A stretch of 64,000 nucleotides of DNA from Paenibacillus alginolyticus DSM 5050 = NBRC 15375 (GTDB lineage Bacteria > Bacillota > Bacilli > Paenibacillales > NBRC-103111): assembly GCF_000422905.1 (NCBI RefSeq), contig NZ_AUGY01000008.1, positions 108,783-172,782 of the forward strand. Direction: 5' to 3'. The translations under genes were made by a program, and so were the position numbers. The notes beneath the pieces were generated by a model. It had not been told where the DNA came from and did no database searches. It saw only the letters and a list, made by a program, of their open reading frames with translations. This document shows, piece by piece, positions 2,022 through 64,000 of this stretch (position 1 is its first letter; each line of letters begins with the position of its first letter).

Positions 2022-3418
2022 TTAAGATAAAATCGCTTTATCTGCGCGTTGTACTGACATTTCTGGCTATCGTTGTGGTTAGTTTGTCAGTCGCCTTTTG
2101 GCTGGCAACTTTCTTTTTCATGAATAGGATTGCGATGGATAATCAAACGGAGATGTTGGCGAAAAGCCGGCAAATTGTCAAACTGATAGAAGACGTACAG
2201 CCGAGTAATCTTGATTCTTTTGTGGCTGGGAGCAATCGCCTAAATGAGAACTACATTTTTACTTTATTTAACGCAAAAGGCGAGCCTGCTACAGAAATTT
2301 CTAAGGATAAAAAAGGGAAGCCTCGTATTTTAGCATCGGAAGTAGACTTTGTTTTACAAGGCAACATGTATAAAAGCCTAGACTATGGCATACCTAAAGA
2401 TCCCATAAACCAGATAAAGGTAGGGATACCGCTCCGTGTAGGAGATACGACATATGCTCTTTTCATTCATCAAAACATCTCCGAAGCAGCCCGGCGTCAA
2501 GGGCAGACAGCCATCATTACTGTACTCCTCATCGTACTCATTGTAGGCAGCTTGCTCATTCTCGTCGCCTCTCGCTATCTAGTAAATCCACTAAAGAAGT
2601 TGACGCTGGCTACGGAACGGTTAGCTCGAGGGAACTTCAATGTTCATGTTTCTGTTAAGCAAAAGGATGAACTAGGGCAGCTAGCTCAAAGTTTTAATCA
2701 TATGGCTGGAGAACTGAAACAGCTGGAACAGATGCGGCAAGACTTTGTTTCGAACGTTTCCCATGAAATCCAGTCCCCTCTTACGTCGATTCGAGGCTTT
2801 TCCAAGGCACTAAGGGGTTCAGAAATTGATGAGGCGGAGCGCGGACGTTACTTAGAAATCATTGAACGCGAGAGTGAGCGGTTAGCTCGCCTCAGTGATA
2901 ATTTATTGAAGCTGGCCTCTCTGGAATCGGAGCATCATCCTTTTCACCCAACCACTTACGATTTGGATGAACAGCTGCGTAGAATTGTTGTATTTTATGA
3001 ACCCCAGTGGTCCAGTAAGCAATTGGAGCTTGATTTGGAGCTCCCTCGAGTGAAAGTTACCGCGGATGCAGACCAATTAAGTCAGGTATGGATGAATCTT
3101 CTTGGGAACGCAATCAAGTTCACACCTGTAAAAGGGACGATACACATTCAGTTGGAACCTCTCAATGACCGGATTCGCATTCGCATTCAAGATAGTGGGA
3201 TAGGAATCGCTGCATCTGATCAAGAACGGATATTTGAACGATTTTATAAGGCGGATGCGTCTAGACATCGCGAGACAGGTGGAAGCGGTTTGGGACTTGC
3301 GATTGTACGGAAAATTGTTGAACTTCACCATGGTACTATTGAACTGCAGAGTGAGATTGATATAGGAACGTTGTTTACCGTTACGATACCGATTCTGATA
3401 TATCCAACTAAAAAATAA
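2018..3418 (+). CDS. Membrane sensor histidine kinase
   Basis: 466 residues. Transmembrane helix about 9-34, an extracytoplasmic sensor region about 35-163, second helix about 164-186, HAMP about 187-240, dimerisation domain with the phospho-accepting His249 in SHEIQSP, and an ATPase domain with N (NLLGNAIKF), D (DSGIGI), F (FERFYK) and GLGLAIV boxes. Complete and intact. It overlaps the response regulator gene by 4 nt and is followed by a strong terminator, so the pair ends the operon. The stimulus cannot be deduced. Confidence 0.93.
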   Translation: MIKIKSLYLRVVLTFLAIVVVSLSVAFWLATFFFMNRIAMDNQTEMLAKSRQIVKLIEDVQPSNLDSFVAGSNRLNENYIFTLFNAKGEPATEISKDKKGKPRILASEVDFVLQGNMYKSLDYGIPKDPINQIKVGIPLRVGDTTYALFIHQNISEAARRQGQTAIITVLLIVLIVGSLLILVASRYLVNPLKKLTLATERLARGNFNVHVSVKQKDELGQLAQSFNHMAGELKQLEQMRQDFVSNVSHEIQSPLTSIRGFSKALRGSEIDEAERGRYLEIIERESERLARLSDNLLKLASLESEHHPFHPTTYDLDEQLRRIVVFYEPQWSSKQLELDLELPRVKVTADADQLSQVWMNLLGNAIKFTPVKGTIHIQLEPLNDRIRIRIQDSGIGIAASDQERIFERFYKADASRHRETGGSGLGLAIVRKIVELHHGTIELQSEIDIGTLFTVTIPILIYPTKK

Positions 3419-53583: not shown

Positions 53584-54623
53584 TTGATTTATATTACTCA
53601 AATTAATAATCTCTTCATTATTAAATCAAATGGTTACCAAGCAGATGTTGTTTTAAAAATCCGCAAGATTCCTTGTCGCGTATGGGTTATAGCGAAGTTA
53701 GAATGGACAGTCCCAGATAATGAAGCAACGGTCCAGCTACTACATGAATTATTTGAGGGAGAGCATGTTCATTTCGAAACTTCGTTGCGATTGGAAGAAC
53801 ATCTTATTCAAAAATGGTTTCCTTACGACGCTGCAACAGCTAAGGCCATACGTGAATATTCGGTTAAGTTTACAAATCTGATGACTCTTAAAGGATTCAG
53901 CCCTAAAACGAAAAAAGCATACGAAGGTCATATCCGAAGATTTTGCCTAACTCATTCAGAAGTGTTTTTACAATTAAATGTCAAGAATGTACATTCTTAT
54001 ATACTGGGCATATTTGGGCAAGAACGCTCACATTCTTATATTAATCAGGCCATGAGTGCGTTAAAGCTTTTTTTTGGAAAGGTATTTGGACGTCCCGAAT
54101 TCATTATGAATCTCCCACGCTTACCTATTCTTCCGGTTTGCGAGTTGGAGAAGTTGTCCGTCTTAAGCTACATGACCTTGATAATGAGCGTTTCGTAGTT
54201 CATATACGGCAAGGCAAAGGCAGAAAAGAGCGATTAACCTTATTGTCGCGATCGGCTTATGAAATGATTTGTATCTATTTGGAGAAGGAAAGTCCTCATA
54301 CTTGGCTTTTTCCTGGAGTTGACCGTGATCGCCCAATCACAGAAAGGAGTATTCAACGAGTATTTGATCGTGCACGTGATGTAGCAGGAATCCGAAAACC
54401 GGCAACCATTCATACGCTCCGTCATTCCTTCGCAACGCATTTGCTTGAAGGTGGCACCGATTTACGCTACATTCAAGAACTTCTCGGTCATGAAAATATC
54501 AAAACTACGCAAATTTATACCCATGTAAGTGTGAAAGACGCACGCCGCGTAATGAGCCCTTTAGATCGAATATTTCCGAGTAGTGGAAATATAATTAACA
54601 CAGATTCCTCTCATGAAGGATGA
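53584..54623 (+). pseudogene. Tyrosine recombinase of the cassette array (non-IntI type), internal deletion
   Basis: TTG start after GGGGCGG. N-terminal extra domain (about 1-75, with KIRKIPCRVWVIAKLEWTVPD), core-binding SAM-like domain (about 85-175, TLKGFSPKTKKAYEGHIRRF), then a break at NLPR near 54120. The catalytic domain resumes one frame over with LTYSSGLRVGEVV (Arg I), GKGRKER (Lys), HTLRHSF (H-x-x-R), LLGHENIKTTQIYTH (His and Tyr) and ends SPLDRIF. About 33-36 codons between the domains are missing. The extra segment between box motifs that defines IntI integron integrases is absent. Same direction as the cassettes; stop 28 nt before the first cassette border. Confidence 0.85.
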
Positions 54624-54658
54624 TAAAACGACATATGTCGCAGATTTTACGTTACACG
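54624..54658 (+). other. attI-like primary site with palindrome
   Basis: Between the recombinase stop and the first cassette lies CGACATATGTCG (54629-54640), a perfect 12-bp palindrome, then CAGATTTTAC and the border G|TTACACG (54651-54658). This is the position of an attI site. The dyad could bind the recombinase or a regulator. Confidence 0.55.
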
Positions 54659-55145
54659 ACAGGCGAAGGAAAATACGGGGAACGATCTGGAAAGTCAGTG
54701 ATAGCATTCTATTGATACGTATGAGGAATCAGTAAGAGCATGCCACGGAAGATGATTCAATGAAGATAGTGCCGATGGCACTAAGGAACAAGACCACCAA
54801 CAAGATCGAAAGGAATAAATATCCAATTACTTTCGAGTGATCAAGGCGTGTTCTTGATATTGTAGCGAATTGAGCAAGTGCATGCCACGGAAGGAAGTTC
54901 AGGGAAGCAATCGCCGATGGCACTAGAGATAGAAGAAGAGCAAGAGAAACAACCATGAAAGACAGGCAGATCTGAAACCCAGATGAATGCAATTTCGGAG
55001 AAGAATGTGGGTAACTCAAATACCAGTCGTGTAACAACGTTTTCCCACTGCGGGGCGTACGCCCCTTGGTCCGACCGAAGGATTTCGGGGATGAAGTTTC
55101 AGTCGGACACATCCACCTTCGGTGGACATCGGGAACACAAACACG
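54652..55145 (+). mobile_element. Cassette 1: ORF-less repeated cassette, copy 1
   Basis: No conserved reading frame. Contains two units with the hairpin TGCCACGG...CCGATGGCA, each exactly 40 nt (54741-54780 and 54883-54922); the stem has 8 bp with one bulged A. Strongly similar to cassettes 6 and 7 throughout. Possible structured RNA or single-strand DNA element. Confidence 0.8.
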
Positions 55146-55152
55146 TTATAAG
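55028..55152 (+). repeat. attC-like site 1 (cassette 1)
   Basis: R'' CGTGTAAC (55028-55035) is the exact complement of cassette 1's start GTTACACG. The short 125-nt form, shared with sites 6 and 7; R' GTTATAAG at 55145. Confidence 0.85.
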
Positions 55153-55251
55153 AAATCAGCGCAAACCGAAAAAAACAATGACAATTTCTTTTTAGACTAT
55201 AAAGAACGGGCAAATTACTTCAAATAGGTACGAAGAAAGGACAATACTAAC

Positions 55252-55617
55252 ATGGAAAACGTATCAAATTTAGATAAGTGGGAATCAATAAAATCTTTGC
55301 AATCGACAATTAGTAAGCTTCAGAATGCCTTATCCCAAATGACACATAATGGCGCAAATACTACTCTAGTAAAGAAAAGACTCAAAGCTGTTTACATAGG
55401 CTTAGCTATACTAGAAAACGTTTGGAATCAAAGCCCCCATCATTATACCCTGGAAGATTTAACAGAAGCTCGAAATGTTATTACTGGTTTATTACCATCA
55501 ATTGAGAACAGTTATGCTAAGTCAAAGACTGGTAGTCCCCAAAGAACACTTTTAGAAAGAAGAATTAAAGCGCTGGAACTATCTATTCAAGCGATTGACG
55601 AACTTTCCACTAAATAA
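55252..55617 (+). CDS. Cassette 2 gene: unknown helical protein
   Basis: 121 residues, entirely helical and soluble, with leucine-rich heptads (ESIKSLQSTISKLQNALSQM; LLERRIKALELSIQAIDEL) and a middle segment YTLEDLTEARNVITGLLPSIE. ATG after GAAAGGA. No family recognised. The only gene in its cassette (55146-55866), AT-rich; 107 nt of untranslated sequence precede it. Confidence 0.7.
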   Translation: MENVSNLDKWESIKSLQSTISKLQNALSQMTHNGANTTLVKKRLKAVYIGLAILENVWNQSPHHYTLEDLTEARNVITGLLPSIENSYAKSKTGSPQRTLLERRIKALELSIQAIDELSTK

Positions 55618-55703
55618 CTCGTAATGTAAACGAAGAACCACTTAACTAACGAACAGGATACGATAATTGATATGTGTAGGTATTTCGAAGAAGGCGCTGA
55701 CAT

Positions 55704-55873
55704 CTTATAACACCGCATTCACGCTGCGGGTCGCTATCGCGCCCCTTGGTCCGCCAGAGGAATTCCGAGGAAGTTGAACCAGGCGGACAACCCTACACTG
55801 CCAAACCGCATCGCGGCCGTTCCCTTCGGTCACTTAAGGCAGTGAGGGTTCGTGAATGCCTGAACGTTATGCG
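55704..55873 (+). repeat. attC-like site 2 (cassette 2)
   Basis: R'' CTTATAAC at 55704 matches cassette 2's start GTTATAAG. Inner boxes GCATTCACG and CGTGAATGC pair, a compensated change from GTATTCACG/CGTGAATAC elsewhere. R' GTTATGCG at 55866. The right 120 nt are identical to site 9. Confidence 0.88.
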
Positions 55874-55903
55874 TAATTACTGGAAACCAATTTTATAAAG
55901 TAG

Positions 55904-56596
55904 GTGTCAACTGTGGGGGCTTTTCAGGCAATCTTAGCATTATTACTTTTGTTATTATTAATGTTCATTTTCTATAAATTGGAATCCTTAATCTCAGCAA
56001 AGGCTTTAGTTTTTACCCCTATAACAATTCCAATATTATTTTATTTAGCTAACCTTGCTAGCTTTGGCTCAGTAATGGACATATTTGGAGATAATAAAAC
56101 TGAAATCTTTATTTGTCTATTTCTTTTCAGTTTCATGATTAAAGGATTTTATATTTTATACATTTTTGAAAGAATCGCTCAATCCTCAGTAGATAACAAT
56201 ATAACAGGAGCACTATTTAGGATCGGATATGCCGCTATATCATCCTGTATATATTTTGCCCTAATTTATACAACAGTATATCGAGTATCAGGAAACACCG
56301 CTTTTCAAGGTAATGTGGGGGAAGGAATAGTTAGTCAATTCATTTCATTTTTGTATTTAAGCACTATTATCTTTACTGTAGGCTTCAGTGATATCAGCCC
56401 AGTAGGGAACTTTCCACGATTAATAGTTTTATTGGAAGTTGTGCTCGGATTTATAACTGTTATTTACGCTATATCTTCGTTCACATATTTTAAAGATAAA
56501 TTCAAGGTGAAATCTTCATTTTTAATTAATAAACATAGGCGAAAGTTAAAACAAAGAATAATAAGGAAACGAGGGCATACTCGAAGAAGCCAGTAA
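55904..56596 (+). CDS. Cassette 3 gene: potassium-channel-like membrane protein
   Basis: 230 residues. About five hydrophobic helices (9-26, 36-56, 66-88, 106-127, 175-196). The pore-type segment YLSTIIFTVGFSDISPVGNF, with TVGFSD at 158-163 in place of TVGYGD, lies before the last helix, as in two-helix K+ channel modules. A basic C-terminal tail (NKHRRKLKQRIIRKRGHTRR) points into the cytosol. GTG start. Ion selectivity of the altered filter is uncertain. Channel-like effectors occur in defence systems, but nothing here proves that role. Confidence 0.7.
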   Translation: MSTVGAFQAILALLLLLLLMFIFYKLESLISAKALVFTPITIPILFYLANLASFGSVMDIFGDNKTEIFICLFLFSFMIKGFYILYIFERIAQSSVDNNITGALFRIGYAAISSCIYFALIYTTVYRVSGNTAFQGNVGEGIVSQFISFLYLSTIIFTVGFSDISPVGNFPRLIVLLEVVLGFITVIYAISSFTYFKDKFKVKSSFLINKHRRKLKQRIIRKRGHTRRSQ

Positions 56597-56599
56597 CTA

Positions 56600-56759
56600 C
56601 GCAAAACACCGTATTCACGCGGCGGGCCTTACGGCCCTTGGTCTGCAGAGATTTTCGAGGAAGCGGATTCAACAGACAACCCTGCACCGACTAAGCGCAT
56701 CGCGCCCGGCCTAACGGCCTTAAGTCAGTGAGGGTTCGTGAATACCAGAACGTTAAGCG
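56600..56759 (+). repeat. attC-like site 3 (cassette 3)
   Basis: R'' CGCAAAAC at 56600 matches the complement of its own cassette start GTTATGCG at 7 of 8 bases. Inner GTATTCACG pairs with CGTGAATAC. R' GTTAAGCG at 56752 fits the classical GTTRRRY. Confidence 0.85.
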
Positions 56760-56793
56760 AAATGACCGGAATGATTAGAAAGAAGGTGAAACA

Positions 56794-57462
56794 TTGAAAT
56801 ATCTAGTGAAATTTATTCTACCTGCAATATGTATCATTGTGGTTGTAACGGCTTTCTGGATTTATCCAAATTTCGGTCCAGGGGAAAAAGAATATTCAAC
56901 CATTATATTGCAACAAGATGAATTATCGAAGATAACCACTAATTTGCAAACTGAACTTAATAATCTAAGAAGTGAAAATCAAAACCAAAGGGATACAATA
57001 ACAGAATTAACAGTAAAACTACGCACATTTGATACAGTATTTATGACGCAATCTGATAACGAAAAGAGTATACAAATATTAAATCGTGTTATTGAAAGAT
57101 TGCCTGGGATTAAAAAGAAGTTGGCATTTATCAAAGAACTCAAGAAAGAAAAAGACAAATATTATTTGATACTAGACTATGTCGACTGGTTCTCAGGAGA
57201 TGAAGCAATAATGGCAGCTAAAGAGGATCATAATCCAAGTGATACTCCCAATGGTTTTTATATAAGGAATAAACAAATAGATTATGACAAGGTGTTACTA
57301 GAGGAGAATACGTTAATATATGTTTTGGAGGGAGCTCTAACTAAAAACATAGAATTTAATAAGTTTATATCCGAGGTATCTAATCAAAATCAAGAACGAT
57401 TATTTAATATCTTGATAACTGATGGAAACGTAACATTACTTGAAGAACAATATAGACCCTAG
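56794..57462 (+). CDS. Cassette 4 gene: membrane-anchored coiled-coil protein
   Basis: 222 residues. One N-terminal membrane helix (FILPAICIIVVVTAFWIY), a coiled coil (about 45-95: LSKITTNLQTELNNLRSENQNQRDTITEL), then a soluble domain with YYLILDYVDWFSGDEAIMAAKED and NGFYIRNKQIDYDKVLL, similar to a domain of unknown function in Bacillus lipoproteins and regulators. TTG start after AGAAGGTG. It occupies cassette 56753-57643 alone. Confidence 0.7.
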   Translation: MKYLVKFILPAICIIVVVTAFWIYPNFGPGEKEYSTIILQQDELSKITTNLQTELNNLRSENQNQRDTITELTVKLRTFDTVFMTQSDNEKSIQILNRVIERLPGIKKKLAFIKELKKEKDKYYLILDYVDWFSGDEAIMAAKEDHNPSDTPNGFYIRNKQIDYDKVLLEENTLIYVLEGALTKNIEFNKFISEVSNQNQERLFNILITDGNVTLLEEQYRP

Positions 57463-57488
57463 TAGGTTATTCAGGATGCCAGTCACTT

Positions 57489-57650
57489 CGCTTAACACCG
57501 TATTCACGCTGCGGGGCTGTCGCCCCTTGGTCTGCCAGAGGGGATTTCGAAGAAGCGGATGCATGCAGACAACCCTGCGAGGCTAAGTCTTCGATCCGGC
57601 GCTACCGCGCCTTAAGCCTCTCGGGTTCGTGAATACAACAACGTTATGTG
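57489..57650 (+). repeat. attC-like site 4 (cassette 4)
   Basis: R'' CGCTTAAC at 57489 is the exact complement of its cassette start GTTAAGCG. Inner GTATTCACG pairs with CGTGAATAC. R' GTTATGTG at 57643. Confidence 0.88.
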
Positions 57651-57686
57651 AAAGAAAAGCAAATATATAAAAAAAGGAGATAAATT

Positions 57687-58142
57687 ATGACTATCAAAGC
57701 ATCTAGTAGATATGATTTTTTAATTAATTCATTAACAAATCTAGCACAAAAGGCTTTTATGGATGAGAAGAAATATAAGAAAAGAATGGATAGCTTAAAG
57801 ATCATTAATATCATATTATCATTTTCCGTGACAGTATTATTGGGATTAAAACTAGGTTGGTTCTCTAATATGGCATTAGTATTAAGCGCAGCTCTTACTG
57901 CCTTTAATACATGGGAAGGATATGCAAATTACAAAGAATTATGGATAAGGAAAACTGAATTAAGAATAAAACTAACTCAATTAATGGGAGATCTTATGAT
58001 GCACTTAACTAAACCAGAAAATCACGAAGATATGGAGAAATATAAGGAATTCTATAGGAGATATGAAGAGTTAACAGAGTATCATTCTAAAGATGTCATA
58101 GCCATTTATCAGAGGGAGAATGAAAGCCATATTAATTCGTAA
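57687..58142 (+). CDS. Cassette 5 gene: SLATT-like two-helix membrane protein
   Basis: 151 residues: a short N-terminal helix, two membrane helices (about 38-55 and 60-75), then a long amphipathic helix with WEGYANYKELWIRKTELRIKLTQLMGDL. This is the plan of SLATT/DUF4231 proteins, predicted pore-forming effectors in nucleotide-signal immune systems. Here it stands alone, without a SMODS-type synthase in the same cassette. ATG after AAAAGGAG. Assignment by pattern, not by search. Confidence 0.6.
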   Translation: MTIKASSRYDFLINSLTNLAQKAFMDEKKYKKRMDSLKIINIILSFSVTVLLGLKLGWFSNMALVLSAALTAFNTWEGYANYKELWIRKTELRIKLTQLMGDLMMHLTKPENHEDMEKYKEFYRRYEELTEYHSKDVIAIYQRENESHINS

Positions 58143-58210
58143 AGATCGTATTAAAGACCGCCCCCTTTTTAAAACTTAATTTGCTAGCAATTCAAAGAAG
58201 GCGCTTCCAT

Positions 58211-58376
58211 CACATAACACCGTATTCAAGCTGCGGTCGCTACGCTCCCTTGGTCTGCCGGAAGGATTTCGGGGAAGAAGAATCGGGCAGACAACCCTGC
58301 GAGGCTAAGTGGCGGAGCCACCCGGCGATACGCGCCTTAAGCCTCGCAGGGTTCGTGAATACAACAACGTTACACG
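58211..58376 (+). repeat. attC-like site 5 (cassette 5)
   Basis: R'' CACATAAC at 58211 is the exact complement of its cassette start GTTATGTG. R' GTTACACG at 58369. Centre folds GCTTAAGCC-type arms around GTGGCGGAGCCAC. Confidence 0.87.
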
Positions 58377-58868
58377 ACAGGCGAAGGAAAATACGGTGAA
58401 CAACCTGGAAAAACAGTGATAGCATTCTAATGATATGTATGAGGAATCAGTAAGAGCATGCCACGGAAGAAGATTCAATGAAGATATCGCCGATGGCACT
58501 AAAGAATTAGATCAACAGCAAGATCGAAAGAGATAAATATCCAGTTACTTTCGAGTGATCAGCCATAGGCGTGTTCTTGATAATGTAGCGAATTGAGCAA
58601 GTGCATGCCACGGAAGGAAGTTCAGGGAAGCAATCGCCGATGGCACTAGAGATAGAAGAAGACCAAGAGAAATAACCCATGAAAGACAGGCAGATCAGAA
58701 ACCCAAATGAATGCAATTTCGGAGAAGAATGTGGGTAACTCAAAGACCAGTCGATTAACAACGTTTTCCCACAGCGGGGCATACGCCCATTGGTCCGTCC
58801 GAGGGATCTTGAGGAAGATAATTCAGACGGACACATCCACCTTCGGCGGACGTCGGGAACATAAAACG
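58370..58868 (+). mobile_element. Cassette 6: ORF-less repeated cassette, copy 2
   Basis: Second copy of cassette 1, with scattered substitutions and small indels that break every reading frame. The two 40-nt hairpin units are kept (58459-58498 and 58606-58645). Its R'' box has drifted. Confidence 0.8.
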
Positions 58869-58875
58869 TTACACG
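58752..58875 (+). repeat. attC-like site 6 (cassette 6)
   Basis: R'' CGATTAAC at 58752 matches its cassette start GTTACACG at only 6 of 8 bases, the poorest of the array. Short form. R' GTTACACG at 58868. Confidence 0.8.
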
Positions 58876-59362
58876 ACAGGCGAAGGAAAATACGGGGAAC
58901 AACCTGAAAAGTCAGAGATAGCATTTTAATGATAAGTATGAGGAATCAGTAAGAGCATGCCACGGAAGAAGATTCAATGAAGATATCGCCGATGGCACTA
59001 AGGAACACGACCAAAAGCAAGATCGGAAAAATAAATTTCCAATTACTTTCGAGTGATTAACCATAGGCGTGCTCTTGATACTGTTGCTAATTGAGCAAGA
59101 GCATGCCACGGAAGGATGTTCAGGGAAGCAATCGCCGATGGCACTATTTGAAGCAGACAAGAGAAACAGCTATGAAAGACAGGCAGATCAGAAACCCAAA
59201 TGAATGCAATTTCGGAGAAGAATGTGGGTATCTCAAAGACCCGTCGTGTAACAACGTTTTCCCACTGCGGGGCTTGCGCCCCTTGGTCCGACCGAAGGAA
59301 TTCGAGGAAGATTATTCAGTCGGACACATCCACCTACGGTGGACGTCGGGAACACAAGAACG
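58869..59362 (+). mobile_element. Cassette 7: ORF-less repeated cassette, copy 3
   Basis: Third copy, directly next to copy 2. Hairpin units at 58958-58997 and 59104-59143, again 40 nt each. Confidence 0.8.
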
Positions 59363-59369
59363 TTATAAG
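59245..59369 (+). repeat. attC-like site 7 (cassette 7)
   Basis: R'' CGTGTAAC at 59245 is the exact complement of its cassette start GTTACACG. Short form. R' GTTATAAG at 59362. Confidence 0.85.
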
Positions 59370-59460
59370 AAAGCTGGGCAAATCTATTAAAAACTATAAA
59401 AAATGAACCCCTAATATAGAAGAACACAGCTCGAAAAAATATTGAGATGAGAGTGATGTT

Positions 59461-59794
59461 TTGTTGAATCGAGTGCGAAGTGATTTAAAATATTATCTTA
59501 CAGAACATCAGAACAAGTACAATAGAATATTACATTATTTTGCTTTTTTGTCCGCTTTCATTGCATGGATATATTTGTTTATTGATCTCAGAGTGACAAT
59601 AACTTGCAATGATACATTATTTGTTATCCTGGATCGGGCACTTTTATTTTGAAGGAAATAAACCAGCCTCCTTCCGTTATCCACTTGTGGGATTTTACGC
59701 CGGATTCACTTGGTTTTTTATAAAGACGATTGAAATATTAACAAATAAAGAAATATTGAATAAATGGATAAACAAAGATAACAAGGAAATCTAA
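59461..59794 (+). pseudogene. Cassette 8 gene: Mpo1/DUF962-like membrane protein, frameshifted
   Basis: The first frame (TTG 59461) gives HQNKYNRILHYFAFLSAFIAWIYLF, the second (from about 59606) IHYLLSWIGHFYFEGNKPASFRYPLVGFYAGFTWFFIKT, ending at 59794. Together they match the DUF962/Mpo1 plan: an early HY, then WIGHF-E-N-PA-F-YPL. A one-base loss near 59600 separates them. Yeast Mpo1 is a 2-hydroxy fatty acid dioxygenase; bacterial members are little studied. Could be a sequencing error or true decay. Confidence 0.7.
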
Positions 59795-59857
59795 TTAAAG
59801 AAAACTTTAGAATAGAGTAGAAATTATTTTGTAAGTATCTCAAGAAGGCCCAGCCAT

Positions 59858-60024
59858 CTTATAACACCGTATTCACGTTGCGGGGCTGACGCCCCTTGGT
59901 CAGCCCGAAGGATTTCGGGGAAGTGATTTCAGGCAGACAACCCTGCAAGGCTAAGTGGCGGAGCCACCTAGTCGCTGACGCTCCTTTAAGCCTTTCGGGT
60001 TCGTGAATACAACAACGTTATAAG
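59858..60024 (+). repeat. attC-like site 8 (cassette 8)
   Basis: R'' CTTATAAC at 59858 is the exact complement of its cassette start GTTATAAG. Inner GTATTCACG pairs with CGTGAATAC. R' GTTATAAG at 60017. Confidence 0.88.
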
Positions 60025-60079
60025 AAATGTCCGAAATACTATAAAATCAAAAAAACATTTAAAAAAGAAGAGGAAAATA

Positions 60080-60528
60080 ATGAATACTTCTTATGATGAG
60101 CAAGCAAAGAAGATATTGGATTCGAATGAAATAAGCAATTCAGAAATTAAAGAGCTTCTAATTCTATCTGCTCATTCATCGAAGAAAGCAGAAGAGTATT
60201 TTAAAGCGAATATCCAGTTAAACAACAAAAATTATTAAATTCTTTAATTGAGATCTCAGGTGATTTTGATGATTTTGGTGACTCTGCTCTCGAAGCTTCA
60301 TACGTTATTAAAGAATTTTCAAATAATTTATTAAAAGACCATGAAGACTCTTTGATAAATATATTTTTAAACGATGAAAGAGGTGCCAGGACATTTCTTG
60401 CAATGGCATTAGGGAAGATCAAGAGTAAGAATATTAAAGACTATATTTATGAATTAAGTAAAGATAAAGAACTACAAGGAAATTGGATTATACAGAAAGC
60501 TATTGAATATTATGAAGACACAAATTAA
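60080..60528 (+). pseudogene. Cassette 9 gene: HEAT-like helical protein, frameshifted
   Basis: ATG 60080 after AAGAGGA gives 52 residues (NTSYDEQAKKILDSNEISNS...KKAEEYF) to a stop at 60238. An overlapping frame from about 60208 continues with KQQKLLNSLIEISGDFDDFG and NDERGARTFLAMALGKIKSK to 60528. Joined, the protein would have about 150 residues of paired helices, like HEAT-repeat immunity-type proteins. A one-base indel near 60205 is inferred. No firm family. Confidence 0.6.
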
Positions 60529-60567
60529 AGAACAATTGTGAATGTAATTCAAAGAAGGCGGCCACAT

Positions 60568-60733
60568 CTTATAACACCGTTTTCCCGCTGCGGGGCTTAC
60601 GTCCCTTGGTCCGCCAGAGGAATTCCGAGGAAGTTGAACCAGGCGGACAACCCTACACTGCCAAACCGCATCGCGGCCGTTCCCTTCGGTCACTTAAGGC
60701 AGTGAGGGTTCGTGAATGCCTGAACGTTAGACG
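60568..60733 (+). repeat. attC-like site 9 (cassette 9)
   Basis: R'' CTTATAAC at 60568 is the exact complement of its cassette start GTTATAAG. R' GTTAGACG at 60726 fits GTTRRRY. The right 120 nt equal site 2, while the left inner box is GTTTTCCCG and no longer pairs fully. Confidence 0.87.
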
Positions 60734-60794
60734 AAACTCTTGATAATACAATTAGACCAGCTACAACCATTTTCGTATTTTCAGGAGGGTAAAC

Positions 60795-61346
60795 TTGAAA
60801 ACACCTTTTGTTATAGCAATCTCAGCGGTTTCAGGTGGTGGAAAGACTACAGCAATACAACTTTTAAACAAGCGATTGACTAATTCTACTGCATTATTTT
60901 TCGATGAATATGATTTTGAAGGACCAGAAAATTTAATAGAGTGGGTTAGACGTGGAGGGAACTATAATGAATGGAAATTACAACCTCTGATAAATGATTT
61001 AACTACGATATTGGATAACAAAGACCATTGTAATGAATATATATTGCTAGATTACCCATTTGCTTACTTGAATCACGAAATGAAAGAATATGTAGATTTA
61101 GCAATATTTATTGATACCCCATTAGATGTGGCAATGGCAAGACGAATATTGAGAAATCAAATAACAACTAAAGAGATTAGAATTGACATGGAATCATATT
61201 TGTCTGGTGCGAGAGAAGCATACGTCACTATGTTAAATACTGTAAAACCAAACTTAGATATAGTTATTGATGGACTTGTAGGCAAGGATATTTTGGTAGA
61301 AGAGATTATTAAGACCGTAAAGAAGCATTTGAAAATTATTCGATGA
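60795..61346 (+). CDS. Cassette 10 gene: P-loop kinase (uridine-kinase-like)
   Basis: 183 residues. Walker A SAVSGGGKTTAIQLL at 10-24; FFDEYDFEGPENLIEWVRRGG as in small-molecule kinases of the uridine kinase group; Walker B-like EYILLDYPFAY; DLAIFIDTPLDVAMARRILR, the lid region with arginines. Likely phosphorylates a nucleoside, sugar or antibiotic. TTG start after AGGAGGG. Intact and alone in its cassette. Confidence 0.75.
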   Translation: MKTPFVIAISAVSGGGKTTAIQLLNKRLTNSTALFFDEYDFEGPENLIEWVRRGGNYNEWKLQPLINDLTTILDNKDHCNEYILLDYPFAYLNHEMKEYVDLAIFIDTPLDVAMARRILRNQITTKEIRIDMESYLSGAREAYVTMLNTVKPNLDIVIDGLVGKDILVEEIIKTVKKHLKIIR

Positions 61347-61358
61347 GGTCAAGAGCTT

Positions 61359-61524
61359 CGTCTAACACCGTTTTCCCGCGGCGGGGCTGCGCCCCTTGGT
61401 CTGCGAGAGACATTTCGAGGAAGCTGAGTCAAGCAGACAACCCTGCAAGGCTAAGTGGCGGAGCCACCCAGTCGCTAACGCTCCTTTAAGCCTTTCGGGT
61501 TCGTGAATACAACAACGTTAAGTG
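61359..61524 (+). repeat. attC-like site 10 (cassette 10)
   Basis: R'' CGTCTAAC at 61359 is the exact complement of its cassette start GTTAGACG. R' GTTAAGTG at 61517 fits GTTRRRY. The right half is shared with sites 8 and 11. Confidence 0.88.
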
Positions 61525-61584
61525 AAAGTCAGGTAAACCCGGATAAAACCATATTTTAAATCATTATATTTGGGGGATTTCAAG

Positions 61585-62001
61585 ATGTATGAAATAAGAG
61601 AAATGACTATTAATGATTATGAGATGTCAATAGAATTATGGCAACGTACAGAGGGCATGGCGTTAAGTGAAGCTGATTCTAAAGAATCAATTAATTACTA
61701 TTTAAACAGAAACAATGGTATGAGTTGTGTATGTGTAGATAAGGAGCGCGTAATAGGGACGATATTGTGTGGACATGATGGTAGGCGGGGATATATTTAC
61801 CATGTAGCAGTTGATCCAGAATATCGAGGCAAAGCACTGGGCAAGAAATTAGTGGTAAGTAGTTTAAAGAAATTAAAATTAGAAGGTATATGTAAGTGTC
61901 ATATCATGGTGATTGCAGTTAATGAAATTGGAAATAAATTTTGGGGAAGAACAGGTTGGATTCGAAGAGACGGGATATTACTATATTCAAGCAATACATA
62001 A
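61585..62001 (+). CDS. Cassette 11 gene: GNAT-family N-acetyltransferase
   Basis: 138 residues from ATG 61585, 8 nt after GGGGG. Acetyl-CoA site IYHVAVDPEYRGKALGKKLVVSSL (V/A-V-x-P-x-x-R-G-x-G/A), preceded by VIGTILCGHDGRRG, and the final NKFWGRTGWIRRDGILLYS. Similar to the YpeA/PA4534-like branch; the substrate may be a protein or small molecule. Such genes are common integron cargo. Confidence 0.85.
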   Translation: MYEIREMTINDYEMSIELWQRTEGMALSEADSKESINYYLNRNNGMSCVCVDKERVIGTILCGHDGRRGYIYHVAVDPEYRGKALGKKLVVSSLKKLKLEGICKCHIMVIAVNEIGNKFWGRTGWIRRDGILLYSSNT

Positions 62002-62078
62002 CAAGAAACTATAAATAATGAAATTTAACACCATATAGAAGAGCATTTTGCAAGTAATATCGAAGATGACCTGACCAT

Positions 62079-62246
62079 CACCTAACACCGTATTCCCGCT
62101 GCGGGGCTGTCGCCCCTTGATCTGCCCGAGGAGATTTCGAAGAAGCGGACTCAGGCAGACAACCCTGCAAGGCTAAGTGGCGGAGCCACCCAGTCGCTGA
62201 CGCTCCCTTAAGCCTTTCGAGTTCGTGAATACAACAACGTTATCGG
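62079..62246 (+). repeat. attC-like site 11 (cassette 11)
   Basis: R'' CACCTAAC at 62079 matches the complement of its cassette start GTTAAGTG at 7 of 8 bases. R' GTTATCGG at 62239. Confidence 0.86.
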
Positions 62247-62285
62247 AAATTGAAGGCAAATATTAATATTACAGGATGCGATTCA

Positions 62286-63263
62286 ATGAAGAAGATAAAA
62301 ATAGAAAAATCACCAATACCTATTATCTGGCTAGACACCCTTGCAATAATTGAGATATATAAGACAAAAATAGGAAAATCATCCGATAATAGAGTTCAGA
62401 AACTATACGATTTGATTAAAATGAAAGTCGTGGAGAGAAAGCTAATTTGTCCATTAGGTGATCATGAAGAAGAAATAGAGGAAGATCTAAAGGACGTAAT
62501 TAACAATATATTGGGTTTGACACTTGGTATCAGGTTTAAGGCTAACGAAGATATACAACAGACGCAAGTATTTAAAGCAATCAAATTGTATGAAACGAAC
62601 GAGATACCTATACTCACATATAAAGATGCTATTTATAAGGATCCGTTAGAAGAGATTAAAACTACTAGTCCATTTATCATATCCGTTGTTGTTAATTCAA
62701 CCTCAGAAGAGATTAGTAGAAGAAAACACACAAAAAAACTAAATTTGGATGAATTACAAAGTGCTAAAGAAAACTATTATATAGATAAAGATTTTCACAA
62801 GCAGTTAGAGGATGAGTTGATGGGCCACTATAGCGCAACTAGATATGTATATGAAACACTAATGTATAAATCAAGAAATAAGGTGCCATTTACTGAAAGA
62901 GAATTTAATCAAATCAATAATATGCTCGCACTTCCCCTAACTTATTGGAAGAGGTATAAATCAAATGGGTTAACTGGTTATCTTGAGTTTCTTAAATCAG
63001 TTGAATATAAGAATCTTCCATTTGTAGATATTAATGCAAGGATGACCGCTGATTTATTTATTTCAAAAAGGAAATTGATTGATAGTGGAGATCCGACTGA
63101 TATATCTAATATTTCAACATTGCTGCCATTTTGTAATTATGTTTTAACTGATAAAGACCAAATGAACAGAATTAAACGGCTAAATATAGATAAGAAGTAC
63201 GATACTTATGTTTATTCTATGTCCAATATTGATGAGTTATTTGATAAGTTAGAAACCCTTTAA
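62286..63263 (+). CDS. Cassette 12 gene: PIN-like nuclease-fold protein
   Basis: 325 residues from ATG 62286 with AGGA 9 nt upstream; an in-frame TTG at 62250 is also open. The N-terminus PIPIIWLDTLAIIEIYK has the first PIN aspartate. The C-terminal GDPTDISNISTLLPFCNYVLTDKDQMNRI supplies the later acidic residues, in the style of larger PIN-like proteins. No partner antitoxin is in the cassette. RNase activity is inferred from the fold only. Confidence 0.65.
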   Translation: MKKIKIEKSPIPIIWLDTLAIIEIYKTKIGKSSDNRVQKLYDLIKMKVVERKLICPLGDHEEEIEEDLKDVINNILGLTLGIRFKANEDIQQTQVFKAIKLYETNEIPILTYKDAIYKDPLEEIKTTSPFIISVVVNSTSEEISRRKHTKKLNLDELQSAKENYYIDKDFHKQLEDELMGHYSATRYVYETLMYKSRNKVPFTEREFNQINNMLALPLTYWKRYKSNGLTGYLEFLKSVEYKNLPFVDINARMTADLFISKRKLIDSGDPTDISNISTLLPFCNYVLTDKDQMNRIKRLNIDKKYDTYVYSMSNIDELFDKLETL

Positions 63264-63304
63264 TTCAAATGATTTTGAAAGTAACTCATAGTAGGCCTCA
63301 ACAT

Positions 63305-63469
63305 CCGATAACACCGTTTTCCCGCTACGGGGCTACGCCACTTGGTCTGCCCGAGGCATTTCGAGGAAGTGGAATCGGGCAGACAACCCTGCACCACCTA
63401 ACCGCATCGCGGCCAGTCGCTACGCTCCTTTAAGGTGGTGAGGGTTCGGGAACACAACAACGTTATACG
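63305..63469 (+). repeat. attC-like site 12 (cassette 12)
   Basis: R'' CCGATAAC at 63305 is the exact complement of its cassette start GTTATCGG. Inner GTTTTCCCG pairs with CGGGAACAC at 8 of 9 bases. R' GTTATACG at 63462. Confidence 0.87.
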
Positions 63470-63654
63470 CAATTTCTGCATAATCAAAAACAAAGCTCTG
63501 AAGCCCCCTAATTAGATTGGAGTCATCAATATGCAATAAGGTACAATATTGGTGAGGGGGAATGAGACGTATGAAAAGCAATATCCTATATGATGAGCAA
63601 CGAATCAAGGTAGCTCAAGAGGCACTTAGTGGAACGAAGTTATCTTATGTGTTT
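63463..63654 (+). mobile_element. Cassette 13, interrupted by an IS
   Basis: Starts with G|TTATACG. A ribosome site (GAGGGGG) and ATG at 63562 or 63571 open a frame (MKSNILYDEQRIKVAQEAL) that runs into the IS sequence at about 63655 and stops at 63702. No attC-like end is seen before the IS. Confidence 0.6.
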
Positions 63655-63666
63655 TGTCAAGTGAAA

Positions 63667-63766
63667 TTCCCTGGTTTTATCAACAGCTTTTCCCTGGTAT
63701 AATCATCGGTTTTTCCCTGGTTTTATCATCAGGAATTCCCTGGTTTTATCATGAAATTCCCTGTGG
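63667..63766. repeat. 23-bp-period terminal repeats of the IS21-like element
   Basis: TTCCCTGGTTTTATCA-type units begin at 63667, 63690, 63713 and 63736, exactly 23 bp apart, plus a partial unit at 63757. IS21-family ends carry such multiple transposase-binding repeats. Confidence 0.85.
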
Positions 63767-63783
63767 AATTTCCAGTTAATCGG

Positions 63784-64000
63784 TCACTTTTGACGCATTA
63801 ATGCGTGCTTAAGGCGGTAACTTTCTCCTTCAAAAACAATGAGCTGTCCGTGATGAGCAAGACGGTCAATCATCGCCGCAGCCATCTGGTCGTCGGTGAA
63901 GATGCCTCCCCACTTGGAGAATTCGAGATTGGTCGTAATGATGAGGCTTCGTCGTTCGTAACTTGCAGCAATCACTTGAAAGAGCAGTTGGGCTTCTTCT
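63784..64000 (-). CDS. istB: IS21 helper ATPase IstB, C-terminal part
   Basis: The frame is open to the window edge. The end reads EAQLLFQVIAASYERRSLII, TTNLEFSKWGGIFTDDQMAA and AMIDRLAHHGQLIVFEGESY, then RLKHALMRQK, the standard IstB finish with sensor-type Thr/Asn. IstB is the AAA+ helper that supports the IstA transposase in strand transfer. The Walker motifs lie outside the window. Confidence 0.9.
   Translation of the reverse strand, partial: EEAQLLFQVIAASYERRSLIITTNLEFSKWGGIFTDDQMAAAMIDRLAHHGQLIVFEGESYRLKHALMRQK

What the first reader, a model, noticed from the sequence alone, without database searches (positions are those of the whole stretch)
53584..63654. Integron-like gene cassette array in a spore-forming Bacillota
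Seen: a tyrosine recombinase gene followed at 28 nt by 12 complete cassettes, each with at most one plus-strand gene and a terminal 124-170 nt imperfect inverted repeat with attC-like boxes. Known: chromosomal integrons of this shape are described mainly in Proteobacteria and several other phyla; I do not know of an established sedentary integron in Paenibacillus-type bacteria. Inference: this is either an integron in a new host or a related, separately evolved cassette-capture system.
Basis: partly seen in the sequence, partly recalled or inferred. Interest (0 to 1): 0.95.

Follow-up and report, generated by a model that had tools for sequence, protein, structure and literature searches.

The report
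Integrons without the integron integrase
This Paenibacillus-type genome carries twelve cassettes in a row behind the broken gene of a recombinase that lacks the insert defining integron integrases; relatives of that recombinase head such arrays in many bacteria and apparently some archaea, and likely capture genes by recombining folded single-stranded sites, so integron-like gene capture probably does not depend on that insert.

Summary
The array is real: twelve cassettes, each starting GTTANNNG, with a start imperfectly complementary over ~18 nt to its own tail (0 of 100,000 permutations). Matching sites occur in 17 of 30 same-genus genomes, several with long arrays, and 11 homologous cassette pairs sit beside different neighbours. 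The window's recombinase gene is broken. Its relatives keep the catalytic residues but lack the IntI-specific insert (41 columns filled in 24 of 24 IntI, 0-2 in 63 of 63 relatives) and group with IntI apart from Xer (100/99). A first cassette starts 40-420 nt behind the recombinase in 42 of 58 loci, from Bacillota to Bacteroidota, spirochaetes and archaeal bins (control 44 of 1280), and in 9 of 13 further Bacillota loci. Paenibacillaceae sites fold as a covarying cloverleaf, bottom strand favoured; a conserved mismatch (A.C top, G.T bottom) may mark the strand. Best reading: a sister class of integrons without the insert held necessary for integron recombination, probably using an N-terminal structure-specific DNA-binding domain instead. 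Sister versus nested is unresolved; activity is untested.

The parts
53584..54198 (+). N-terminal remnant of the array recombinase (N-terminal extension plus SAM-like core-binding domain)
   Evidence: Pfam Phage_int_SAM_4, E 1.5e-7; 32% identity to the G017 relative over residues 26-195 of this ORF
54138..54623 (+). C-terminal catalytic remnant, in another frame; no IntI insert
   Evidence: Pfam Phage_integrase, E 2e-37; 63-64% identity to the G008 and G017 relatives; TIGR02249 aligns only at profile 123-178 and 237-315
54624..54651 (+). attI-like site: inverted repeat ACGACATATGTCG followed by the GTTA crossover box
   Evidence: read directly; in related loci an inverted repeat of 5 or more precedes the first head in 19 of 42, control windows 58 of 420
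54652..55145 (+). cassette 1, no clear gene; site core 55033-55145
   Evidence: head/own-tail complementarity
55146..55866 (+). cassette 2, gene 55252-55617 (unknown); site core 55709-55866
55867..56752 (+). cassette 3, gene 55904-56596 (ion-channel-like); site core 56605-56752
   Evidence: Pfam Ion_trans_2
56753..57643 (+). cassette 4, gene 56794-57462 (unknown); site core 57494-57643
57644..58369 (+). cassette 5, gene 57687-58142 (DUF4231); site core 58216-58369
58370..58868 (+). cassette 6, no clear gene, near-copy of cassettes 1 and 7; site core 58757-58868
58869..59362 (+). cassette 7, no clear gene; site core 59250-59362
59363..60017 (+). cassette 8, Mpo1-like gene, apparently frame-broken (59461-59794); site core 59863-60017
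60018..60726 (+). cassette 9, no plus-strand ORF of 60 aa or more listed; site core 60573-60726
60727..61517 (+). cassette 10, P-loop kinase-like gene 60795-61346; site core 61364-61517; homologue in the Cohnella lupini array
   Evidence: 74% identity to L103:11992-12815
61518..62239 (+). cassette 11, GNAT acetyltransferase gene 61570-62001; site core 62084-62239
62240..63462 (+). cassette 12, gene 62250-63263 (unknown, 337 aa); site core 63310-63462

Best explanation
This is a cassette array with an integron's layout whose recombinase lacks the IntI-specific insert; it likely inserted circular gene cassettes at an attI-like site next to the recombinase gene by recombining the folded bottom strand of each cassette's end site. 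Shown: cassette units, matched ends, adjacency to the recombinase, homologous cassettes in different arrays, absence of the insert, folding potential and covariation. Inferred: recombination itself, bottom-strand use, crossover between G and TT, and the role of the N-terminal domain. Proposed mechanism: in the excised circle the cassette's own head and tail form an ~18-bp outer arm (9 bp, a 2-nt mismatch, 7 bp) that is mostly broken up in the array, so circles would fold well and be captured while resident sites would stay mostly silent. Strand choice would come from conserved G.T (bottom) versus A.C (top) pairs and a 3-nt bulge in the spacer. An N-terminal domain resembling UvsW/XPB/HARP structure-specific DNA-binding domains likely does the recognition work that IntI's insert (I2) does. 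In the window strain the recombinase is broken, so this array is probably frozen unless another copy acts in trans.
For: Own-end complementarity: 12 cassettes and 90 cassettes, 12.09 of 17 versus 6.94, 0 of 20,000 permutations. Sites in 17 of 30 same-genus genomes. End pairs: 191 in 401 kb downstream of relatives' recombinases, 15 in 653 kb upstream. First cassette behind the recombinase in 42 of 58 loci, control 44 of 1280, and in 9 of 13 further loci. Chains of two or more cassettes in 33 of 58 loci, upstream control 7 of 64. Eleven homologous cassette pairs with differing neighbours. Insert absent in 63 of 63. Outer arm folds in 124 of 138 circles and 21 of 138 arrayed sites; bottom strand more stable than top in 125 of 138 circles. 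Covarying cloverleaf from 69 sites. Position 11 is A/G in 129 of 138 cassettes and in 18 of 22 first cassettes of other lineages. Top fold match by E-value IntI4 2a3v. Family plus IntI clade 100/99.
Confidence: 0.86

Rival explanations
1. An ordinary integron lineage whose integrase secondarily lost the IntI insert; nothing about it predates IntI.
For: The tree does not settle whether the family is IntI's sister or contains it: family as one side of a branch 74/82, 76% of bootstrap trees; an earlier quick tree with poorer outgroups nested IntI inside it.
Against: 0-2 of 41 insert residues in 63 of 63 members from several phyla. IntI forms one clade on a long stem (100/100, 1.01 changes per column), as would be expected if the insert was gained there. 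The family's second arm is not seen in the 8 classical cassettes examined.
Confidence: 0.09
2. The cassettes are moved by some other recombinase (host XerCD or another integrase); the adjacent recombinase is a bystander.
For: The window's recombinase is broken while its array persists, and G000 has other tyrosine recombinases (17 matches including this one).
Against: Adjacency with fixed direction and a short distance recurs in 42 of 58 loci from many phyla (control 44 of 1280) and in 9 of 13 further loci. attI-like regions share the L-box/GTTA layout with the sites in several loci.
Confidence: 0.04
3. The sites are interspersed repeats or MITE-like elements that happen to lie between unrelated genes, without site-specific capture.
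For: Sites are repeated and structured, and IS-like sequence lies nearby.
Against: Heads match their own tails far better than others; ORFs point one way (in 114 of 138 cassettes the longest plus-strand ORF exceeds the longest minus one); homologous cassettes share ends in different contexts.
Confidence: 0.01

Closest known systems
Integrons with IntI (class 1 and sedentary chromosomal integrons)
   Same: Recombinase plus attI plus an array of mostly one-gene cassettes in one direction; cassette ends complementary to each other; folded end sites; top fold match by E-value is IntI4 2a3v.
   Different: No IntI insert; GTTANNNG rather than the classical GTTRRRY box (recalled); a second 7-nt arm (2-4 of 7 in 8 cassettes of two classical integrons); in Paenibacillaceae a cloverleaf site; an extra N-terminal domain of about 95 residues (IntI of about 320 aa have no room for it; the longer IntI met here were not examined for it).
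Archaeal integrons (PMC9668308, passages read)
   Same: Cassette arrays in archaea.
   Different: Those IntI carry the IntI-specific domain and were found with tools that require it; the archaeal family members here lack it.
Integron-like subgroup of tyrosine recombinases (PMC8138268, passages read)
   Different: The passages read do not describe cassette arrays for insert-less members and call the insertion essential for integron function. Whether its members include this family was not tested.
Xer recombinases (XerC/D, archaeal XerA, XerH)
   Same: Same catalytic core; XerA 5hxy and 4a8e are close in sequence and fold.
   Different: The 14 references form a separate clade (100/99) and are 293-317 aa, without the N-terminal extension; they act on duplex dif sites (recalled).
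CTXphi integration by host XerCD (PMC4792948, passages read)
   Same: Folded single-strand site used by recombinases without I2.
   Different: No recombinase of its own and no array; [quoted passage not shown]

Membership tests
Integron (IntI-defined) | IntI-specific insert around patch III (I2) | tested here: not met
   41 insert columns: 24 of 24 IntI full; 63 of 63 family members 0-2 residues; the window's C-half skips profile 179-236 of TIGR02249 and scores 138.9 bits against a cut-off of 265 for the whole protein
Integron (IntI-defined) | Tyrosine recombinase with complete active site | tested here: met
   R, K, H, R, H and Y invariant in the 15 aligned relatives; the window copy is broken
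Integron (works like) | attI site next to the recombinase where the first cassette begins | tested here: met
   first cassette 40-420 nt downstream in 42 of 58 loci, control 44 of 1280; 9 of 13 further loci
Integron (works like) | Tandem cassettes, mostly one ORF each, same direction | tested here: met
   114 of 138 cassettes have a plus-strand ORF of 60 aa or more; 100 aa or more on plus in 103, on minus in 8
Integron (works like) | Imperfect palindromic end sites that fold, bottom strand favoured | tested here: met
   Paenibacillaceae-type sites only:
Integron (IntI-defined) | Core box GTTRRRY (recalled) | tested here: not met
   GTTA (87 of 90), then mostly T at position 5 (55 of 90), G at 8 (87 of 90)
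Integron (works like) | Cassettes exchanged or shuffled between genomes | tested here: met
   11 homologous pairs among 143 cassettes, different neighbours
Integron (works like) | Integrase-catalysed attI x attC recombination and excised circles | not testable with these tools
   needs bench work
Integron (IntI-defined) | LexA/SOS control of the integrase | tested here: inconclusive
   one consensus only: GAAC-N4-GTTC within about 300 nt upstream in 1 of 73 loci
Chromosomal Xer/dif | Groups with XerC/XerD/XerA | tested here: not met
   14 Xer references form a separate clade; family plus IntI 100/99

The most novel reading that the evidence does not exclude
Cassette capture is older than the integron integrase. 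A widespread sister or ancestral class of integrons, in bacteria and archaea, uses insert-less recombinases that read folded DNA with a UvsW/XPB/HARP-type N-terminal domain and a bipartite cassette-specific stem that works only in the free circle; IntI is the branch that later gained I2. Detection tools that demand I2 cannot see it.
Probability: 0.55. Interest if true: 0.95.

Novelty: new variant of a known kind. Interest (0 to 1): 0.88.

Why it matters
Integrons are defined, and searched for, by IntI's insert, which two of the papers read here call necessary or essential for integron function (passages of PMC9668308 and PMC8138268). IntegronFinder 2.0 reports one complete integron among the Firmicutes genomes it examined, plus a few integrase-less clusters, some of which could be such arrays (passages of PMC9024848). 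A family that heads cassette arrays without the insert makes the origin of integrons testable: PMC4792948 (passages) proposes that gaining an I2-like domain permitted recognition of single-stranded sites, and these recombinases would be the missing comparison. It also opens a reservoir of mobile genes in Bacillota and beyond (among 104 cassette proteins: acetyltransferases, NUDIX, kinase-like proteins and a few matches to anti-phage models).

Tried and rejected

Rows dropped before counts: one search used 90 adjacent pairs with both ends readable, from 162 site matches. Searches used 138 of 143 cassettes; one search used 69 of those 138 after removing near-copies; one search found the L box in 114 and 100 of 138. 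Searches used the 58 of 80 loci with at least 1200 nt downstream. One search used proteins of 340 aa or more from the 76 loci where one was read, plus 7 seeds, 63 in all. One search used 48 of those 63, 12 of 24 IntI and 14 Xer rows. Of the 32 matches listed, 20 were fetched (14 full-length or closely similar, 6 shorter). The cassette-protein scan took 104 ORFs: 103 of 90 aa or more picked by script plus the ORF of window cassette 2. Searches chose pairs by complementarity; position 11 was not part of the choice.
Full report
Observation. The window (G000:C5:108783-172782) holds a broken tyrosine recombinase gene (53584-54623) and, 28 nt after its last ORF, twelve complete cassettes in one direction. 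Each cassette starts at a GTTANNNG box and ends with a structured site whose first box is AAC. The start of each cassette is imperfectly complementary, over about 18 nt, to the stretch just before its own site: 12.1 of 17 positions on average, against 6.4 for the tails of other cassettes, 0 of 100,000 permutations. This is what units that circularise would show, and it sets the cassette ends.

Relatives of the array. One site used as a DNA query found matches in 17 of 30 same-genus genomes, the window's own included; several have only one or two matches. A profile of the sites found 162 matches in 31 loci and later 301, partial ones included, in 51 locus-strands. About 30 sites lie in 22 kb of G016. 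Over 90 complete cassettes the own-end match is 12.09 of 17 against 6.94 (0 of 20,000 permutations). The profile is bipartite: positions 1-9 match in 0.92-1.0 of cassettes and 12-18 in 0.67-0.90, positions 10-11 mostly mismatch (0.39 and 0.06), and agreement falls to the level expected from composition from position 19. In 8 cassettes of two classical integrons the first arm runs 8-12 nt and the second arm matches only 2-4 of 7.

Mobility. Among 143 cassettes there are 11 homologous pairs (70-96% identity) whose next neighbours differ: the 30 nt after the site's GTTA agree at only 8-15 positions. In the two clearest pairs similarity starts at the GTTA box (L110/L114: 21 of 25 inside, 7 of 25 outside; L044/L114: 23 and 6). 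In other pairs the upstream flank is itself a conserved site, so it says less, and in the two pairs with the 1106-nt L055 cassette the heads do not correspond. Window cassette 10 has a 74% homologue in the Cohnella lupini array. In G016 one cassette occurs twice at 96% (all).

Recombinase. The window's copy lacks part of the middle and changes frame. The active-site residues are invariant in 15 relatives. The IntI-specific insert fills 41 alignment columns in 24 of 24 IntI and 0-2 in 63 of 63 family members. A careful tree puts the family with IntI apart from 14 Xer sequences (100/99), IntI as one clade (100/100), and the family itself as one side of a branch with 74/82; a quick tree with poorer outgroups had IntI nested within the family. 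Sister versus nested is therefore open.

Arrays behind the recombinase. End pairs (11 or more of 13 arm positions) number 191 in 401 kb downstream and 15 in 653 kb upstream. In loci with at least 1200 nt downstream, a first cassette begins 40-420 nt after the recombinase match in 42 of 58, against 44 of 1280 anchors in upstream DNA: 20 of 21 Paenibacillaceae and 22 of 37 others; three of the 22 do not start with GTT and are probably chance. Two or more chained cassettes (10 or more of 13) occur in 20 of 21 and 13 of 37, upstream control 7 of 64. As a test on other loci, a search of 299 Bacillota genomes found the recombinase at E 1e-50 or better in 26. Of 14 full-length or closely similar loci fetched, 10 had the first cassette. 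Of 6 shorter or less similar relatives, 1 did.

Sites. In Paenibacillaceae, joining each cassette's own head to its site gives an outer stem with 10 or more of 18 pairs on the bottom strand in 124 of 138 circles, but in only 21 of 138 arrayed sites; the circle is on average 8.4 kcal/mol more stable, and the bottom strand beats the top in 125 of 138 circles. A consensus of 69 diverse sites is a cloverleaf, an outer stem plus three hairpins, with several pair types at many pairs; consensus energy is -66.6 bottom and -59.9 top for circles, -46.9 and -41.3 for arrays. The circle form carries own-end pairs by construction of the test, so the hairpins and L box, which also appear in the array form, are the independent part. 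Between L box and crossover there are 9 nt on one side (102 of 114) and 6 on the other (99 of 100). Position 11 reads A in the head and G in the complement of the tail in 129 of 138 cassettes, and in 18 of 22 first cassettes of other lineages, a position not used to select them: an A.C mismatch on top, a G.T pair on the bottom. Sites of other phyla were not folded.

attI. The DNA before the first head contains an inverted repeat of 5 or more in 19 of 42 loci (58 of 420 control windows). In G005, G008 and Saccharibacillus sacchari it reads TTCGTGAA-6 nt-GTTA, the spacing of the attC bottom strand. In G017 the base before TTA in attI is T and not G, which fits a crossover 3' of that G; this is one case.

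Literature. Passages read: IntegronFinder 2.0 (PMC9024848), natural history (PMC8618304), archaeal integrons (PMC9668308), recombinase classification (PMC8138268), ancestral activity (PMC4792948). Searches covered the held library for Paenibacillus or Bacillota integrons and insert-less arrays; the papers listed show none on this system by title or abstract start, and I read only the five named, in passages. The library lacks most subscription papers and all preprints, so prior description elsewhere is possible.

Verdict. What it works like: an integron. Membership: it fails the feature that defines IntI, so it is not filed as an IntI integron but as a sister class. Activity remains to be shown.

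Noticed in passing
window 54651-55145, 58369-58868, 58868-59362: Three gene-less cassettes 89-91% alike, each with what look by eye like two copies of a ~50-nt hairpin-like element (GCATGCCACGG...GATGGCACT); possibly a small RNA or a nested structure.
   Followed up: partly
window 63640-64000: Short direct repeats (ttccctggttttatcat) and an ORF resembling an IS21-type helper gene (by eye, not searched) interrupt cassette 13 at the contig end.
   Followed up: no
L019 (G000:C9) 2602-3062: A two-gene unit beside array sites with a ParE-family toxin behind a small ORF, like the toxin-antitoxin cassettes known from large integrons.
   Followed up: partly
alignment A5 (104 cassette proteins): A few matches to anti-phage models (GajA/OLD-like, SAVED-HNH-like, SduA-like) among Paenibacillaceae cassettes.
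   Followed up: partly
plasmid hits H7-H25: Mostly Acinetobacter recombinases (one annotated TnpF), about 46% identical to the family over residues 119-367 only; not checked for arrays.
   Followed up: no
L043 (G016), L049 (G005), L071, L076, window: Several array recombinases are broken, as if activity is often lost while arrays persist.
   Followed up: partly
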